Of a DNA stretch of 64,000 bases, positions 40,339 through 48,524 are shown piece by piece; within the stretch, counting starts at the first letter, position 1, and the number at the start of each line of letters is the position of its first letter. The stretch is from Pseudomonadota bacterium. GTDB taxonomy: Bacteria; Myxococcota_A; UBA796; GCA-2862545. Location of the stretch: assembly GCA_023954855.1 (NCBI GenBank), contig JAGSGY010000013.1, forward strand, positions 1-64,000. The letters run 5' to 3'. Made by a program: the position numbers and the translations under genes. The notes below the pieces were generated by a model. That model worked only from the letters and a program-made list of their open reading frames with translations, was not told where the DNA came from and did not search any database.

Positions 40339-42120
40339 TTGGAACCCTGTCCCTTCTGCAACACACCTGTCGATGGGGACTTGATCCGCTTCGGTGGAAC
40401 TTGTCCCAGCTGCTTCGGAGAGATCCCAGGCGAAGAGGCCGCTACGGATCCCGGCGAGGCCGTGAAGGCCGCGCAGGTCCAGCAAGACGAAGCACGTGTC
40501 CGACGTCGCATGATGGTCCCGGCCATCATGGGCGCGCTCGCGTTGCTCGCGCTGGGTTCTGCCGCATGCCTGATCGGCTTGCGAACCGCCAGCACCCAGA
40601 CCGAACTCGCGATCGATGCCGCTCTTGCGGATGTCGAGGACGAGGTCACGGTGGATCCCGATGCGCCGAAGAAGGGCGAAGGCAGGCTTGTCGTCGAGCC
40701 TGTCGTGGTCGACGAGGCCACCGGCCGCGTGGGCTACGTCGATCCTCGTACCGGCGAGGAAGTCTCTGTCGATGAAGCCACGGGCACCGTGACGCTCATC
40801 GACGAAGTCGCTGGCGTGAAGCGGGTCATCAACGCGGCGACCGGTGAGGCCGAGGTTTACGATCTCGAGACCGGTGAGCGGGCGATGGTCGACCAAACCA
40901 CCGGCATGGCCGTCGTGCGCGACGAAGAAGCGGGAACCGCACGCGTCGTCGACCCTCGCACTGGAATCACCACCGTCGTCGACGAAGAGACGGGTGCTCC
41001 GACACACGTCATCAACCCTGTCACGGGTGAGACACAGGGTGTCGACGAGGGAACGGGCTTCCTGGTGGTCGAAGATCCAAACACGGGCACCAAATCGGTG
41101 GTGAACACAGCGACGGGAATCGTCGCGGACGTCGACTCCCGCACGGGTGTTGCTGAGCTGGTGAACCCCGAAGATGGCAGCGCGCTGCTGTTTGACCCCG
41201 AGACCGAAGAAGTCGCGACGGTCGACCCCACCACTGGCGTCGCGTCGTTTGTGGATGAAGAGGCTGGCACGACGACTGTCGTCGATCCCCGGTCCGGAGC
41301 GACGGCCGAGGTCGATGGCAGCACGGGCTCGGCGACGCTCGTCAACCCGCGTACCGGCCAGACCACGATCGTGAACCCCGAAGAGGGCACGGTCGCCAAG
41401 ATCGACCCCCTCACGGGAACGGCCATCACGGTGGCTCCGACCGTCGAGGTGAGCGACGAGGATCTCGAGGGGATCGCGGCACTGCCCGACGGACGCCTGC
41501 CGTCTGACGAAGAGCTTGCCGGCCTGGGCGAAGATCTCGATGATCTTCCTGAAGGGCGCATTCGCTCAAAGTCTGAGCTGACCGAGAACTTCCAGATTGG
41601 TGAGCTCGGAACCGCGCCAGACGCGGGCCAAGGCACCACCTCGGGCACCCGCGTCGTCGAGGGCGGCGCGTCCGTGGGCTCTGGACTCTCATCCGGTCCT
41701 CGCGAGGCGACGGTCAAGGTCGATGCTTCGACGGACGTCACGACGACCAAGGCCTCGCAGTACACCGTGCTGGGCCTCACGCCCGACGTGTCGATCTCGC
41801 GGCGCGAGCAGCTCGGCATCCGTCTCGAGGACGACCAGGCCATCATCGCGATGATCAAGCGCGTCATGGACACCGAGATTCCGCGACTTCGGGTTTGCTA
41901 CGAGCGCCGGCTCAAGCAGGCGCCGGAGCTCAAGGGACGCTGGGCCCTCAGATTCACGGTGCGTGCCGACGGCTACACCGAGGCGGCGACCGTGAACGGA
42001 CTCGACAGTCGTGACGACCAGCTCGAGGCCTGCGTGGTCGAGAAGTTGAAGAGCTGGCAGTTCCAGAAGATCCGTGAAGACCAGCCGATCAAGAAGACCG
42101 TCACCTTCCGTCCGAGCTAG
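40339..42120 (+). CDS. AgmX/PglI-type membrane protein with decapeptide-repeat domain
   Basis: 593 residues from TTG 40339. The order is a zinc-ribbon-like N-terminus with two Cys-Pro-x-Cys pairs (CPFC 4-7, CPSC 22-25) in the cytoplasm, and a membrane helix at about 58-80. A block of 24 ten-residue repeats follows (125-365, consensus D-P-x-T-G-x-x-x-V-V), then a low-complexity linker. The C-terminal AgmX/PglI domain (about 505-593) has RVCYERRLKQAPELKGRW and LEACVVEKLKSWQF. AgmX/PglI domains occur in myxobacterial envelope and gliding-associated proteins and resemble TonB-type energy-coupling ends. The repeat block should form a periplasmic solenoid. Confidence 0.85.
   Translation: MEPCPFCNTPVDGDLIRFGGTCPSCFGEIPGEEAATDPGEAVKAAQVQQDEARVRRRMMVPAIMGALALLALGSAACLIGLRTASTQTELAIDAALADVEDEVTVDPDAPKKGEGRLVVEPVVVDEATGRVGYVDPRTGEEVSVDEATGTVTLIDEVAGVKRVINAATGEAEVYDLETGERAMVDQTTGMAVVRDEEAGTARVVDPRTGITTVVDEETGAPTHVINPVTGETQGVDEGTGFLVVEDPNTGTKSVVNTATGIVADVDSRTGVAELVNPEDGSALLFDPETEEVATVDPTTGVASFVDEEAGTTTVVDPRSGATAEVDGSTGSATLVNPRTGQTTIVNPEEGTVAKIDPLTGTAITVAPTVEVSDEDLEGIAALPDGRLPSDEELAGLGEDLDDLPEGRIRSKSELTENFQIGELGTAPDAGQGTTSGTRVVEGGASVGSGLSSGPREATVKVDASTDVTTTKASQYTVLGLTPDVSISRREQLGIRLEDDQAIIAMIKRVMDTEIPRLRVCYERRLKQAPELKGRWALRFTVRADGYTEAATVNGLDSRDDQLEACVVEKLKSWQFQKIREDQPIKKTVTFRPS
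40711..41433 (+). repeat. 24 tandem decapeptide repeats
   Basis: Each unit is 30 bp (one has an extra codon, at the tenth copy) and encodes (D/N)-(P/E)-x-(T/A)-G-x-x-x-V-V. DNA identity between copies is low while the protein pattern is strict, showing selection on structure rather than recent duplication. Confidence 0.9.
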
Positions 42121-43114: not shown

Positions 43115-44674
43115 GTGAATCGTTTCTGCCACTTCCTCTCGACTGGAATGGTCGCGCTCGCTGCATGCGGAGAGCCGACGAGTGAGGTTGCGAGCCCTGG
43201 AGCCACAGCCCCCGCCGGTGAAGCAGCGCTGACGGTGGTCTACACGGCCCATGGTGAGGGTGAGATTGAGCCCTGTGGTTGACCGCGTCATCCTCTGGGC
43301 GGTCTGTCCAGGCGAAGTCAGTGGGTCGAGGACGCGCGCTCGTTGGGTGCAGTCGTCTATGTGAACGCCGGGAACGCGCTAGCCCCGCCTTCTAGGAACA
43401 ACCATGGGTCGATCGGGGATGCAGAGCGCATCAAGGCCGAGCTCATCCTCCAGACAGCCGCAGCGGACCAGATCGATGCGATGGCTCTCGGCGAAGAAGA
43501 TTGGCGTCTAGGTCTGGACTGGCTTCGGCAGCGGTCCGCAGAGCTTGCATTGCCCGTGCTGGCTGCCAATCTCGAGTGTGATGGCGTCGCGCCGTTCCCG
43601 GCGAGCCGAGTCGTCGAGCGTGCTGGGCTGAAGGTGGGCATTGTCGGTGTGACGAGTGGACAGGTTCCCGGCTGCATCGTTTCCGACCCCATCGCCGCCG
43701 CCGGTCGCGTAGCGGATGGCCTCAGGGCCGAGGTCGACGTGGTGGTGGGCTTACTGCCCCTCCGGCTGACCCGGATTGAGGAAGGAGCGGATCTCGGGAT
43801 CGACCTCGCGGTGAGCGGGGGTGAGCCCGTGAAGTACGAAGACCTGGTTCCGTGGCGGGGTGGGTACAAGGCGGCCTCGGGGGGCCAGACCAAGCATCTG
43901 GGTGCCGTCGGTCTCTACCCGAGTCCAGGCGCGACGGGTTGGGCCCCCGATCCATCACTGGTCTTGCTTCGTGAGATCGAGAAGACGCAGGCGCTTCGTG
44001 ATCGCGTTGCCGATCGGCTTGAGAAGGCCAACGACGAAGGGCGGCGTAGCCGCTACGGCGAGATGATCGCCAAGTACGACGCCGATCAAGAGGAACGCCG
44101 GGCGAAAGTCGCGGCGTTGGCGGGAGACAGCGGCGTGGGCAATCGGCTCGTCAACAAGCTGGTCCCTCTCGATGAGGCGATCTCGGATCACCCAGAGACT
44201 CTGGAGCGCGTGACTTCAGCGAAGGCTCGGGTCACTGCGGCTGCCACCGGGGGAGCGGACGTCACCGAGCTGGTCAACGTCCCACACCTCATCCCGGGAG
44301 ACGGACCGTTTGTGGGAGCCGACGCCTGCCAGTCGTGTCACACCGAGCAGCACACCCAGTGGCGTCGGACCTCTCATGCCAGAGCGTACAAGGGCCTTGT
44401 GGACGTCGATAGGGCCATGGACCCGGAGTGCTACTCCTGCCACGTCACCGGGGCGGACTCCGAGCACGGACCGCGCGAGCCGATGCTGGTCGGTCCGTTC
44501 CGCGATGTGCAGTGCGAAGCCTGTCATGGGCCCGGGCGTGCCCACATTGCAGCACCGGCAACGGTACGAATGGTGAAGAGCCCAGATGAATCTCTGTGCA
44601 TCACCTGCCATGATGGTGAGCGAGACATGGGGCGCTTCGAGCTGGAGCGCTACCTCAAGAGGGTGTCGCATTGA
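43115..44674 (+). CDS. UshA-like tetraheme cytochrome lipoprotein with selenocysteine (UGA at 43280)
   Basis: 519 residues if the in-frame TGA at 43280-43282 is read as Sec56. GTG 43115 (GGAGG 4 nt upstream) starts a lipoprotein signal ending in LAAC. The next segment, VVYTAHGEGEIEPCG-Sec-P then LGGLSRR, matches the 'EPCGC...LGGLARR' stretch of UshA-like metallophosphatase relatives, with Sec at the second Cys. The phosphatase motifs are degenerate (GEEDW where GNHE-like would be). A coiled coil spans about 285-335, and four heme sites follow: CQSCH 405-409, CYSCH 439-443, CEACH 467-471 and CITCH 495-499. Periplasm-facing electron transfer is inferred. A SECIS-like hairpin lies at 43295-43311. 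It is coupled to the P1 peptidase gene (TTGA). Confidence 0.88.
43280..43311 (+). promoter_or_regulatory. UGA(Sec) codon and bacterial SECIS hairpin
   Basis: The UGA is at 43280-43282. CUGGGCGGUCUGUCCAG (43295-43311) folds into a 6-bp stem (one G-U) with loop GGUCU. The loop's first G is separated from the UGA by 18 nt. As I recall the E. coli fdhF element, both loop and spacing are the same. Downstream codons remain in frame and conserved. Confidence 0.88.
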
Positions 44675-45546
44675 GCTTTCCGACGCTGATCTCTGGCGTG
44701 TTCGCCGGACACTGGACCTCCCCAGAGAGGACCACCGGCTGCACGGCGTTTCTTTTTCCAGGCGGCGCGACCGCGGGTGTGTGCGTCCCCGGAAGCGCGA
44801 CGGGTACGCGAGAGATGGGGGCTCTCGAGTCCGGTCATCTTGCGCCTGAGATTCACGGGCTCTGCCTGTCAGGTGGCTCCGCGTTTGGGTTGGCGGCCGC
44901 AGACGGCGTCATGCGTACGCTCGCCGAGCAGGGCATCGGCTTCGACACGTCCAATGGGCCAGTTCCGATCGTGCCGGCGGCGATTCTCTACGACCTCTCC
45001 ACCGGGACGGTGCGTCCCGACGCGGCATCGGGCCGGGCAGCTGCCGAGAGCGCTTCATCGCGGCCCTTGGCCGAAGGGCGGGTCGGCGCTGGCGCCGGAG
45101 CCAAGGTCGGTAGCGTGACGGGCTCCGCGGTCCCCGGTGGCTTTGGCTGCTCGACCTATGCCGTAGGGGAGTGGACTGTAGGCGCCGCCGTCGCTGTGAA
45201 CGCTCTGGGCAGCGTTCGCGACCCCGAGACGGGCGCGTGGGTCGCTGGAGGGCCGCCCACGGACTTGCGTCGACCGGGCAGTCCACGAGAGCAGACGACA
45301 CTTGCCGTCGTCGTGACGGATGCGCCCCTCGACAAGGGTGCGGCCACGGTGCTCGCACGCATGGCAAGTGCCGGGCTTGCCCGCACGCTTTACCCCGCGT
45401 ACACCGCATTTGATGGTGACGTGGTGTTCGCGGTCTCACCTGCCAAGGGCCCCTGTGTCGACCCGATGGATCTGACCCGGCTCGGCCATGCGGCGGCGAT
45501 CGTCGTGGCCCGGGCGATTGTGCGAGCGGTCAGTCGAGCATCGTGA
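44671..45546 (+). CDS. P1-family (S58, DmpA/NylC-like) Ntn peptidase
   Basis: 291 residues from TTG 44671, which overlaps the preceding stop (TTGA). The family patterns are HGLCLSGGSAFGLAAADGVM, GAGAGAKVGSV, GGFGCSTY and then REQTTLAVVVTDAPLDK. By comparison with NylC (…N-T-T-L…) the self-cleavage site and new N-terminal nucleophile should be the first Thr of Gln-Thr-Thr-Leu. These enzymes act as aminopeptidases or amide hydrolases after autoprocessing into two chains. Location is probably cytoplasmic, with no signal peptide. The 3' end overlaps the convergent flavoprotein gene by 17 bp. Confidence 0.9.
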   Translation: MSFPTLISGVFAGHWTSPERTTGCTAFLFPGGATAGVCVPGSATGTREMGALESGHLAPEIHGLCLSGGSAFGLAAADGVMRTLAEQGIGFDTSNGPVPIVPAAILYDLSTGTVRPDAASGRAAAESASSRPLAEGRVGAGAGAKVGSVTGSAVPGGFGCSTYAVGEWTVGAAVAVNALGSVRDPETGAWVAGGPPTDLRRPGSPREQTTLAVVVTDAPLDKGAATVLARMASAGLARTLYPAYTAFDGDVVFAVSPAKGPCVDPMDLTRLGHAAAIVVARAIVRAVSRAS

Positions 45547-46720: not shown

Positions 46721-47686
46721 ATGAATGTCCTCGGAATCGAGTCCAGCTGCGACGAGACCGCCGCCTCTGTGGTGGGGGCCACGGGCGTGCTCTCGGATGT
46801 GGTGCATAGCCAAGTCATCCACGCCGAGTACGGGGGCGTCGTTCCCGAGCTCGCAAGCCGTGCTCACGTCGAGAAGATGGGAACGGTGGTTCGCGCTGCA
46901 CTCAGCGAGGCCGGCATCGAGCGACCAGATGCGGTCGCGGCAACCGCCGGGCCTGGCTTGATTGGCGCAGTGCTCGTGGGCCTGTCGTTTGCGAAGGGGC
47001 TCGCCGCGGCGTGGGATGTCCCATTCCTGGGCATCAACCACCTCGAAGGGCACCTGCTCTCGGCATTGCTCGAAGACCCCGCCCCGGCGTTCCCATTTCT
47101 CGGGCTGGTGGTCAGTGGCGGGCACTCCACCGTGTACCTGGCACGTGACGTGGGCAACTACACCGTGCTCGGTGAGACCATCGACGATGCCGCCGGTGAG
47201 GCCTTCGACAAGACCGCCCGCATGATGCGCCTTGGCTACCCGGGTGGGCCCGTCGTGGACCGGCTCGCTGCCGAAGGCAATCCCAAGGCCGTGAAGTTCC
47301 CCAGGCCAAGACCCGGCGACCTGGACTTCTCGTTCTCAGGACTCAAGACCGCCGTTCGCACCCACGTGCAGAAGAAAGACCGGGCCAGCGATGTCGACGT
47401 CTGCGCGTCCTTTCAGGCGGCAGTGGTCGACTGTCTTCTCGGACGCGTGAAGGAGGCCGCAGAGCGCACCGGTGTGCGGCGTCTCGCACTCGCGGGCGGT
47501 GTGGCCGCGAATAGTGAGCTCCGCCGGCGTGCACTGGAGCTCGATCTCGATGTCTTTGTTCCCCCAAAGAATCGCTGTACCGACAACGGCGCGATGATCG
47601 CGAACGCAGGGCGGCAGCGCCTCATCCGCGGCGAACGCCATGCAATGGACCTGGGCGCTCGCCCCGGCTGGAGGGTCGATGAGTGA
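46721..47686 (+). CDS. tsaD: tRNA N6-adenosine threonylcarbamoyltransferase
   Basis: 321 residues, standard for TsaD/Kae1. The start MNVLGIESSCDETAASVV, metal ligands HLEGH (INHLEGHLL) and VSGGHSTVYL, and the C-terminal GGVAANSELRRR and NGAMIANAG are all present. It transfers threonylcarbamoyl from TC-AMP to A37 of tRNAs reading ANN codons, together with TsaB (59649 in this window), TsaC and TsaE. Its stop lies inside the rsmA start region (8-bp overlap), so the two are one operon. Confidence 0.97.
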   Translation: MNVLGIESSCDETAASVVGATGVLSDVVHSQVIHAEYGGVVPELASRAHVEKMGTVVRAALSEAGIERPDAVAATAGPGLIGAVLVGLSFAKGLAAAWDVPFLGINHLEGHLLSALLEDPAPAFPFLGLVVSGGHSTVYLARDVGNYTVLGETIDDAAGEAFDKTARMMRLGYPGGPVVDRLAAEGNPKAVKFPRPRPGDLDFSFSGLKTAVRTHVQKKDRASDVDVCASFQAAVVDCLLGRVKEAAERTGVRRLALAGGVAANSELRRRALELDLDVFVPPKNRCTDNGAMIANAGRQRLIRGERHAMDLGARPGWRVDE

Positions 47687-48524
47687 AGAACTCCATCCGG
47701 CGGTTCTACTTCGCGCCCTCGAACAGCGGGCACGCAAGCGCTTTGGCCAGCACTTCCTGGCGCGGCCATCGATTGTGTCTCGCATCGTGCGTGGGGCTCG
47801 AGTCTCCGAAGGGGACTCCGTCCTCGAGATTGGACCCGGTCTTGGCGTATTGACGCGGGAATTGATGCGAACTGGGGCCTCGGTGACCGCTGTAGAGCTC
47901 GACCGCGACCTCGCGGCTTTCCTGCGCGAGCGCGAGCCCGACCTCCGGCTCATCGAGGGGGATGCCATGGTGGTGGACCTCGACGAGGCCATCCCGGATC
48001 CGCCGGCCAAGGTCGTGGCGAACCTTCCGTACAACGTCGGCACGCAGCTTGTGCTGCGTCTGATCGACGAGCCCGCCAAGGTCTCCTCGATCACGGTGAT
48101 GCTCCAGAAGGAAGTTGTGCAGCGGATGCTCGCGGAGCCAGGGAACCGGACCTATGGGGCCCTGACCGTTCAAATTGCCGTGCGCGGTCAAGCGAGCTGG
48201 GTCTTGGGCGTCCCGCCGGAGGCGTTCCATCCGCCACCGAAGGTCGACTCGGCGGTGGTCCGGATTGACCTCTACGAGGCTCCTCGCACCGGAGCGGTCA
48301 CTCCAGAGCAGTTCGACAGGGTCGTTCGCGCCTGCTTTACCCAGCGGCGAAAGACCTTGATCAACAGCCTCTCCACGATGATTGGCAAGGAACGGGCCCG
48401 AGCGGCTGCCGAGCGCGCAGAGCTTCCGGAGCGCATTCGCGGTGAGGCACTCGACGTCGAGGCCTTTGTACGGCTCGCCGAGGCTGTGTACGCGATTTCC
48501 GCGGAGCAAGGCGACGAGGCCTAG
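47679..48524 (+). CDS. rsmA: 16S rRNA (adenine1518/1519-N6)-dimethyltransferase
   Basis: 281 residues from ATG 47679 (GGAGGG just upstream). Family motifs: KRFGQHFLARPSIVSRIV, the SAM site VLEIGPGLGVLTREL, and the catalytic NLPYNVGTQ with HPPPKVDSAV later. It methylates A1518 and A1519 in helix 45 during 30S assembly. It overlaps tsaD by 8 bp. Confidence 0.97.
   Translation: MSEELHPAVLLRALEQRARKRFGQHFLARPSIVSRIVRGARVSEGDSVLEIGPGLGVLTRELMRTGASVTAVELDRDLAAFLREREPDLRLIEGDAMVVDLDEAIPDPPAKVVANLPYNVGTQLVLRLIDEPAKVSSITVMLQKEVVQRMLAEPGNRTYGALTVQIAVRGQASWVLGVPPEAFHPPPKVDSAVVRIDLYEAPRTGAVTPEQFDRVVRACFTQRRKTLINSLSTMIGKERARAAAERAELPERIRGEALDVEAFVRLAEAVYAISAEQGDEA

What the first reader, a model, noticed from the sequence alone, without database searches (positions are those of the whole stretch)
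43115..44674. Selenocysteine in an UshA-like tetraheme lipoprotein, with an fdhF-like SECIS
The frame from 43115 stops at TGA 43280 and continues in the same frame to 44674, carrying the rest of a recognisable protein. The TGA sits in Cys-Gly-UGA, where relatives read Cys-Gly-Cys before a 'LGGL-x-R-R' stretch. A hairpin at 43295-43311 has loop GGUCU 18 nt after the UGA; as I recall, both loop and spacing match E. coli fdhF. Named UshA-like (seleno)protein families exist in annotation databases, so the family may be known. This example, fused to a four-heme cytochrome with decayed phosphatase motifs, deserves study as a redox enzyme with a Cys-Sec pair.
Basis: partly seen in the sequence, partly recalled or inferred. 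Interest (0 to 1): 0.9.

Follow-up and report, generated by a model that had tools for sequence, protein, structure and literature searches.

The report
Known-family selenoprotein: UshA-like tetraheme lipoprotein
The gene almost certainly reads an in-frame stop codon as the 21st amino acid, selenocysteine, in a secreted four-heme protein, but the protein is a divergent member of a selenoprotein family already named in databases, whose chemical job appears untested.

Summary
The frame 43115-44674 is broken only by TGA 43280-43282, and the genome carries selA, selB, selD and tRNA-Sec. In 52 family genes, this one included, the same codon of the same PCG-x motif is TGA; in 17 other homologues it encodes Cys. 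The hairpin 43294-43312 (loop GGUCU, 18 nt after the UGA) meets the published bacterial SECIS rules. Alone it is statistically weak. Its conservation is not: the second Gly codon is GGT in 51 of 52 UGA genes against 11% in the same genes, and the leucine is always CTN. Sequencing error, pseudogene and plain termination are very unlikely.

The family is known: NCBIfam NF041198 "UshA-like (seleno)protein" (PCGU), reported as COG0737 CxU in 2008. The four-heme fusion is part of that model. This protein scores 243 bits, under the 275-bit cut-off, as do 32 other listed full-length UGA genes, so annotation probably truncates many.

The predicted fold is a 5'-nucleotidase/SoxB domain that has lost its mapped metal ligands, plus a cytochrome c554-type tetraheme domain. 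Most likely it is an exported lipoprotein oxidoreductase in which a Cys-Gly-Sec centre trades electrons with the hemes. Substrate unknown; the redox step is inferred.

The parts
43115..44674 (+). Whole coding sequence of the UshA-like tetraheme selenoprotein, 519 residues with U56 (GTG start is the likeliest; no strong ribosome-binding site seen)
   Evidence: about 57% identical to the same-genus relative
43115..43168 (+). Lipoprotein signal peptide ending in lipobox LAAC (Cys18)
   Evidence: lipobox-like LAGC/LVAC/LVGC/LGAC at the matching place in most relatives inspected
43274..43282 (+). Cys54-Gly55-Sec56 (TGT GGT TGA), the CxU motif
   Evidence: P-C-G-U/C invariant in all 46 aligned homologues; TGA in 52 genes, Cys codon in 17
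43294..43312 (+). bSECIS hairpin, loop GGUCU at 43301-43305, 18 nt after the UGA
   Evidence: GGT at the loop codon in 51/52 UGA genes; stem pairing and Arg-codon covariation
43217..44185 (+). 5'-nucleotidase/SoxB-like metallophosphoesterase-fold domain with the metal ligands replaced, including a long helical hairpin (boundaries approximate)
   Evidence: AlphaFold model pLDDT 92, pTM 0.90; Z about 30 to 5'-nucleotidases over about 270 residues; ligand columns
44327..44341 (+). CxxCH heme site 1 (CQSCH)
44429..44443 (+). CxxCH heme site 2 (CYSCH)
44513..44527 (+). CxxCH heme site 3 (CEACH)
44597..44611 (+). CxxCH heme site 4 (CITCH)
44671..45546 (+). Downstream neighbour: peptidase family S58 protein, TTG start overlapping the stop of the selenoprotein gene
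   Evidence: Pfam PF03576, 128 bits; synteny kept in the same genus

Best explanation
The gene encodes an exported lipoprotein of 519 residues in which UGA 43280 is decoded as selenocysteine, directed by a bSECIS hairpin 18 nt downstream and the genome's own SelA/SelB/SelC/SelD. The N-terminal domain has the fold of 5'-nucleotidases and SoxB but has lost the di-metal phosphoesterase ligands. In their place a Cys-Gly-Sec motif lies in the loop after the first strand, where the first metal-binding loop of the phosphatases lies. The C-terminal domain is a cytochrome c554-like tetraheme module. The most likely working is redox: the Sec/Cys pair reacts with a small or protein-bound substrate outside the inner membrane and passes electrons to, or takes them from, the four hemes, which connect it to the respiratory chain. 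Sec decoding is shown as far as sequence can show it; the lipoprotein and heme assignments follow from motifs; electron exchange between Sec and heme, its direction and the substrate are inferred.
For: Single in-frame TGA in an otherwise open, homologous frame. selA 506 bits, selB 301 bits, selD 253 bits, all over curated cut-offs; tRNA-Sec 61.9 bits with anticodon TCA. 52 UGA genes with constant 18-nt spacing to the loop, and Cys in 17 others. The loop codon is GGT in 51/52 UGA genes against 11.2% of Gly codons in the same genes; in 11 Cys genes it is GGC 7, GGT 3, GGG 1. In the main stem class the Arg codon on the 3' side is AGR in 18 of 20 genes where base 17 is U, though AGR makes up 5% of Arg codons; it is CGN in 17 of 22 others, Fisher p 1.2e-5 without correction for descent. 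The same genome has a SelW-like gene with C-V-V-TGA and an AhpC-like gene with TGA-T-S-C, so Sec decoding is in general use. Fold. Invariant columns are PCG(U/C), GG and the heme ligands. All eight mapped ligand positions are replaced in this protein. Lipobox conserved.
Against: No protein-level evidence of Sec. Hairpin energy alone is ordinary. No redox partner gene next door; neighbours are S58 peptidase, tsaD, rsmA and similar. Four UGA relatives have no CxxCH after the Sec within the sequence fetched, so the Sec site may not always need an attached heme domain. Model coordinates could not be read, so the distance from Sec to the hemes was not measured. Some relatives keep a few phosphatase ligands.
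Confidence: 0.72

Rival explanations
1. Selenoprotein, but the CGU motif is a metal or metalloid-binding site (or keeps a phosphoesterase/SoxB-type hydrolase role on a sulfur substrate) rather than a centre that exchanges electrons with the hemes.
For: The motif lies on the loop that carries the first metal ligands in 5'-nucleotidases; the fold is also that of SoxB, a sulfur-handling hydrolase; some relatives keep Asp and His ligands.
Against: In this protein all mapped di-metal ligands are replaced (H, E, N, E, E, P, G, P), and DxH and NH are lost almost throughout the aligned family; replacing Cys by Sec and carrying four hemes both point to redox chemistry.
Confidence: 0.2
2. The TGA is a true stop, a sequencing error or a decayed gene; the downstream part is a separate or dead gene.
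For: Hairpin alone no better than shuffled sequence; TGA plus loop pattern is at chance level in the window; a TTG-started ORF exists at 43343.
Against: TGA at the identical codon in 52 genes from separate assemblies, conserved protein on both sides (EIEPCG before, PxxPxGGL after), Cys in the rest, full Sec machinery. An ORF from 43343 would lack the first strand, the motif and any export signal for a c-type cytochrome.
Confidence: 0.02
3. UGA is read through as another residue (Cys or Trp) by a suppressor or an altered code.
For: Cys is the alternative residue in homologues.
Against: TGA serves as an ordinary stop in this genome, including the end of this gene; tRNA-Sec, SelB and a conserved SECIS are present.
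Confidence: 0.02

Closest known systems
NCBIfam NF041198 UshA-like (seleno)protein, UshA_like_PCGU
   Same: Whole-length match (profile 16-513 of 519, E 4e-72), same PCGU motif, heme domain inside the model
   Different: 243 bits, below the curated cut-off of 275; belongs to a more divergent branch together with most of its order
COG0737 UshA-like selenoprotein of the Global Ocean Sampling survey (2008)
   Same: CxU motif in a COG0737 protein, 76 Sec and 92 Cys sequences reported (PMC2398784)
   Different: The passages read mention no heme domain; not compared sequence by sequence here
5'-nucleotidases (E. coli UshA, T. thermophilus 2z1a, CD73) and SoxB
   Same: Fold of the N-terminal domain, Z about 29-31 over about 270 residues
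   Different: Di-metal ligands replaced; CGU motif added; the partner domain is a tetraheme cytochrome
Cytochrome c554 of Nitrosomonas (1bvb) and the multiheme protein 6i5b
   Same: CxxCH arrangement, profile E 3e-20 and 1e-27
   Different: Here joined to an UshA-like Sec domain
NF049981 UshA-like (seleno)protein family 2
   Same: Weak N-terminal match, 29.7 bits
   Different: Far below its 140-bit cut-off; its motif is given as CxxU (PMC13188914)

Membership tests
NF041198 UshA-like (seleno)protein (PCGU) | Score over the curated cut-off of 275 bits | tested here: not met
   243 bits, 235 in the genome search. Of the full-length UGA genes listed, 33 including this one are below and 19 above; heme-bearing UGA genes from both sides fall in one tree group, so I treat this as a divergent branch of the same family, not as a formal hit of the model
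NF041198 UshA-like (seleno)protein (PCGU) | Sec or Cys in the P-C-G-U/C motif | tested here: met
   PCGU; invariant in the alignment
NF041198 UshA-like (seleno)protein (PCGU) | Full-length match including the heme-binding part | tested here: met
   profile 16-513 of 519
Bacterial selenoproteins (Sec by UGA recoding) | selA, selB, selC, selD in the genome | tested here: met
Bacterial selenoproteins (Sec by UGA recoding) | bSECIS within the published limits | tested here: met
   against limits in PMC13188914; bSECISearch itself not run
Bacterial selenoproteins (Sec by UGA recoding) | Sec present in the protein | not testable with these tools
   needs mass spectrometry or 75Se labelling
UshA/5'-nucleotidase enzymes | Di-metal ligands DxH, GD, GNH, H, GHxH | tested here: not met
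   window residues H, E, N, E, E, P, G, P at those places
UshA/5'-nucleotidase enzymes | Metallophosphoesterase fold | tested here: met
   predicted model
Multiheme c-type cytochromes (c554 type) | Four CxxCH motifs in a Cytochrome_C554-like domain | tested here: met
   Pfam PF13435 49.4 bits; four CxxCH

The most novel reading that the evidence does not exclude
A selenol in a repurposed phosphatase fold exchanges electrons directly with four attached c-type hemes on the cell envelope: a selenocysteine-to-heme redox enzyme class, conserved across a bacterial order and class, whose substrate (perhaps a sulfur or selenium compound) is unknown.
Probability: 0.4. Interest if true: 0.6.

Novelty: new member of a known kind. 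Interest (0 to 1): 0.36.

Why it matters
The Sec reading is solid, and the family is widespread in the relatives searched, with no biochemically tested function found in the papers read. It joins selenium chemistry to multiheme electron transfer in one chain, so its activity can be tested directly. In practice, the existing family model's cut-off misses at least 33 full-length UGA genes in this lineage. Those genes are probably annotated as truncated cytochromes or nucleotidases, which hides much of this lineage's selenoproteome.

Tried and rejected
The hairpin as stand-alone proof was rejected: its energy is ordinary, the TGA-N18-GGTCT pattern is at chance, and Rfam gave nothing above its gathering thresholds, only a chance-level hit in the permissive scan. 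The idea that the tetraheme fusion is special to this gene was rejected: 48 of the 52 UGA genes have four CxxCH. A functional clue from gene neighbours was sought and not found: tsaD and rsmA lie downstream in two relatives, an HMGL-like gene lies beside a third. Papers on this protein's function were sought without success.

Full report
What was checked. The frame starting GTG 43115 runs to the stop at 44672-44674 with one interruption, TGA 43280-43282. Translation with TGA as Sec gives 519 residues: a short signal with a lipobox (LAAC, Cys18)...EIEPCGUPRHPLGGLSRR..., and four CxxCH motifs near the C-terminus.

Is the TGA a Sec codon? The genome (6.1 Mb, 178 contigs, 97% complete) contains selB (301 bits), selA (506) and selD (253), all over curated cut-offs, and a tRNA-Sec with anticodon TCA (61.9 bits; ARAGORN agrees). 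It also contains a SelW-like gene with C-V-V-TGA and an AhpC-like gene with TGA-T-S-C, two motifs known for selenoproteins, so Sec decoding is in general use.

Relatives. A search of 142 related genomes with NF041198 found matches in 129. Sixty-nine genes were read in detail, this one included. In 52 the codon is TGA; in 17 it encodes Cys, as PCGC or (once) ACGC. In a maximum-likelihood tree the label Sec/Cys needs two changes in all: one large Sec group of 49 that includes this protein, and a small group of three that have no CxxCH after the Sec in the sequence fetched. A sequencing error or pseudogene cannot explain this.

The SECIS. The hairpin 43294-43312 has seven pairs, loop GGUCU, 18 nt of spacing, and -10.9 kcal/mol. 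This meets the published bSECIS limits (PMC13188914). The E. coli SECIS sequence quoted in PMC3834832 contains the same GGTCT. By itself the hairpin proves little: z is -0.39, and TGA-N18-GGTCT occurs three times in the window against 2.2 expected. The loop also encodes Gly-Leu of a conserved protein motif. The evidence is in the silent positions: the loop Gly codon is GGT in 51 of 52 UGA genes against 11.2% of Gly codons in the same genes, the preceding Gly codon is GGC in 51 of 52 (the other is ambiguous), and Leu is CTN in 52 of 52. In 11 Cys genes the same codons vary. In the stem of the main class, pairs 18-30, 19-29 and 21-27 are kept in 42 of 42 and 20-28 in 40 of 42. At pair 17-31, AGR arginine codons (5% of Arg codons) are chosen in 18 of 20 genes with U at 17, and CGN in 17 of 22 others (Fisher p 1.2e-5, not corrected for descent).

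The protein. AlphaFold gives pLDDT 92 and pTM 0.90. The N-terminal domain matches 5'-nucleotidases and SoxB (Z about 29-31 over about 270 residues), with a long helical hairpin, then a domain related to cytochrome c554 (profile E 3e-20 to 1bvb; Pfam 49 bits). Against the nucleotidase ligands DxH, GD, NH, H and GHxH this protein has H/E, N, E/E, P and G/P. Across the aligned family DxH and NH are almost gone as complete motifs, while Asp of GD and the later His residues survive in a minority. What is invariant instead is P-C-G-(U/C), a Gly-Gly and the heme ligands. The motif lies in the loop after the first strand, where the first metal ligands of the nucleotidases lie.

How it most likely works. 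An exported lipoprotein whose Cys-Gly-Sec centre does redox chemistry on an unknown substrate and exchanges electrons with four hemes. Shown by sequence: Sec codon, machinery, SECIS conservation, fold prediction, loss of metal ligands, heme motifs. Inferred: redox catalysis, Sec-heme electron exchange, its direction, the substrate. Gene neighbours do not help: S58 peptidase, tsaD, rsmA.

What is already known. The family was listed as COG0737 UshA-like CxU with 76 Sec sequences in 2008 (PMC2398784), as UshA-like protein in a 2022 review (PMC9312934) and as NF041198 in a 2026 review (PMC13188914). The NF041198 model spans the heme part, so the fusion is not new. This protein scores 243 against a cut-off of 275. 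In one search, 19 full-length UGA genes lie above the cut-off and 33 listed ones below it, this one included. It is therefore a divergent branch of a known selenoprotein family that current annotation rules probably miss. I rate it a new member of a known kind.

Noticed in passing
L176 (own genome C87:1710-1916, - strand): SelW-like Rdx protein with in-frame TGA in C-V-V-TGA: a second selenoprotein candidate of the same genome.
   Followed up: partly
L184 (own genome C65:5333-5644, - strand); also C144:2291-2659 and C95:23887-24267: Three AhpC/TSA-family matches each with one in-frame TGA; the first reads AAFW-TGA-TSC, a UxxC redoxin motif. The other two were not read.
   Followed up: partly
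L091, L092, L093, L094: Shorter UGA relatives with no CxxCH after the Sec codon, still with GGC GGT CTN at 18 nt. L091-L093 (same phylum) form a separate tree branch; L094 sits among the heme forms and may have lost the domain or have it split off.
   Followed up: partly
L091 (G074:C3:3536-4654): The NF041198 match in this gene is reported with two in-frame TGA codons; only the PCGU one was examined.
   Followed up: no
L017-L023, L028, L092 compared with window 43294-43312: Two variants of the same SECIS: a CUG/UCC-type stem without bulge, and a CUC- or CUU-type with GCC whose stem can shift by one position (bulged C and extra closing pair), nearly all holding GGUCU.
   Followed up: partly
window 46721-48524; L059; L097: The selenoprotein gene lies upstream of tsaD and rsmA here and in a same-family and a same-class relative, suggesting a long-standing location.
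   Followed up: partly
own genome C132:44137-44925 (L048, L049): Two adjacent heme-domain matches to NF041198 without the UshA part, next to an AhpC/TSA-type match (C132:45031-45303).
   Followed up: no
window 40339-42120 (+): 593-residue protein with many degenerate repeats of the type 'VDEATGTVTLIDE' and no Pfam match.
   Followed up: no
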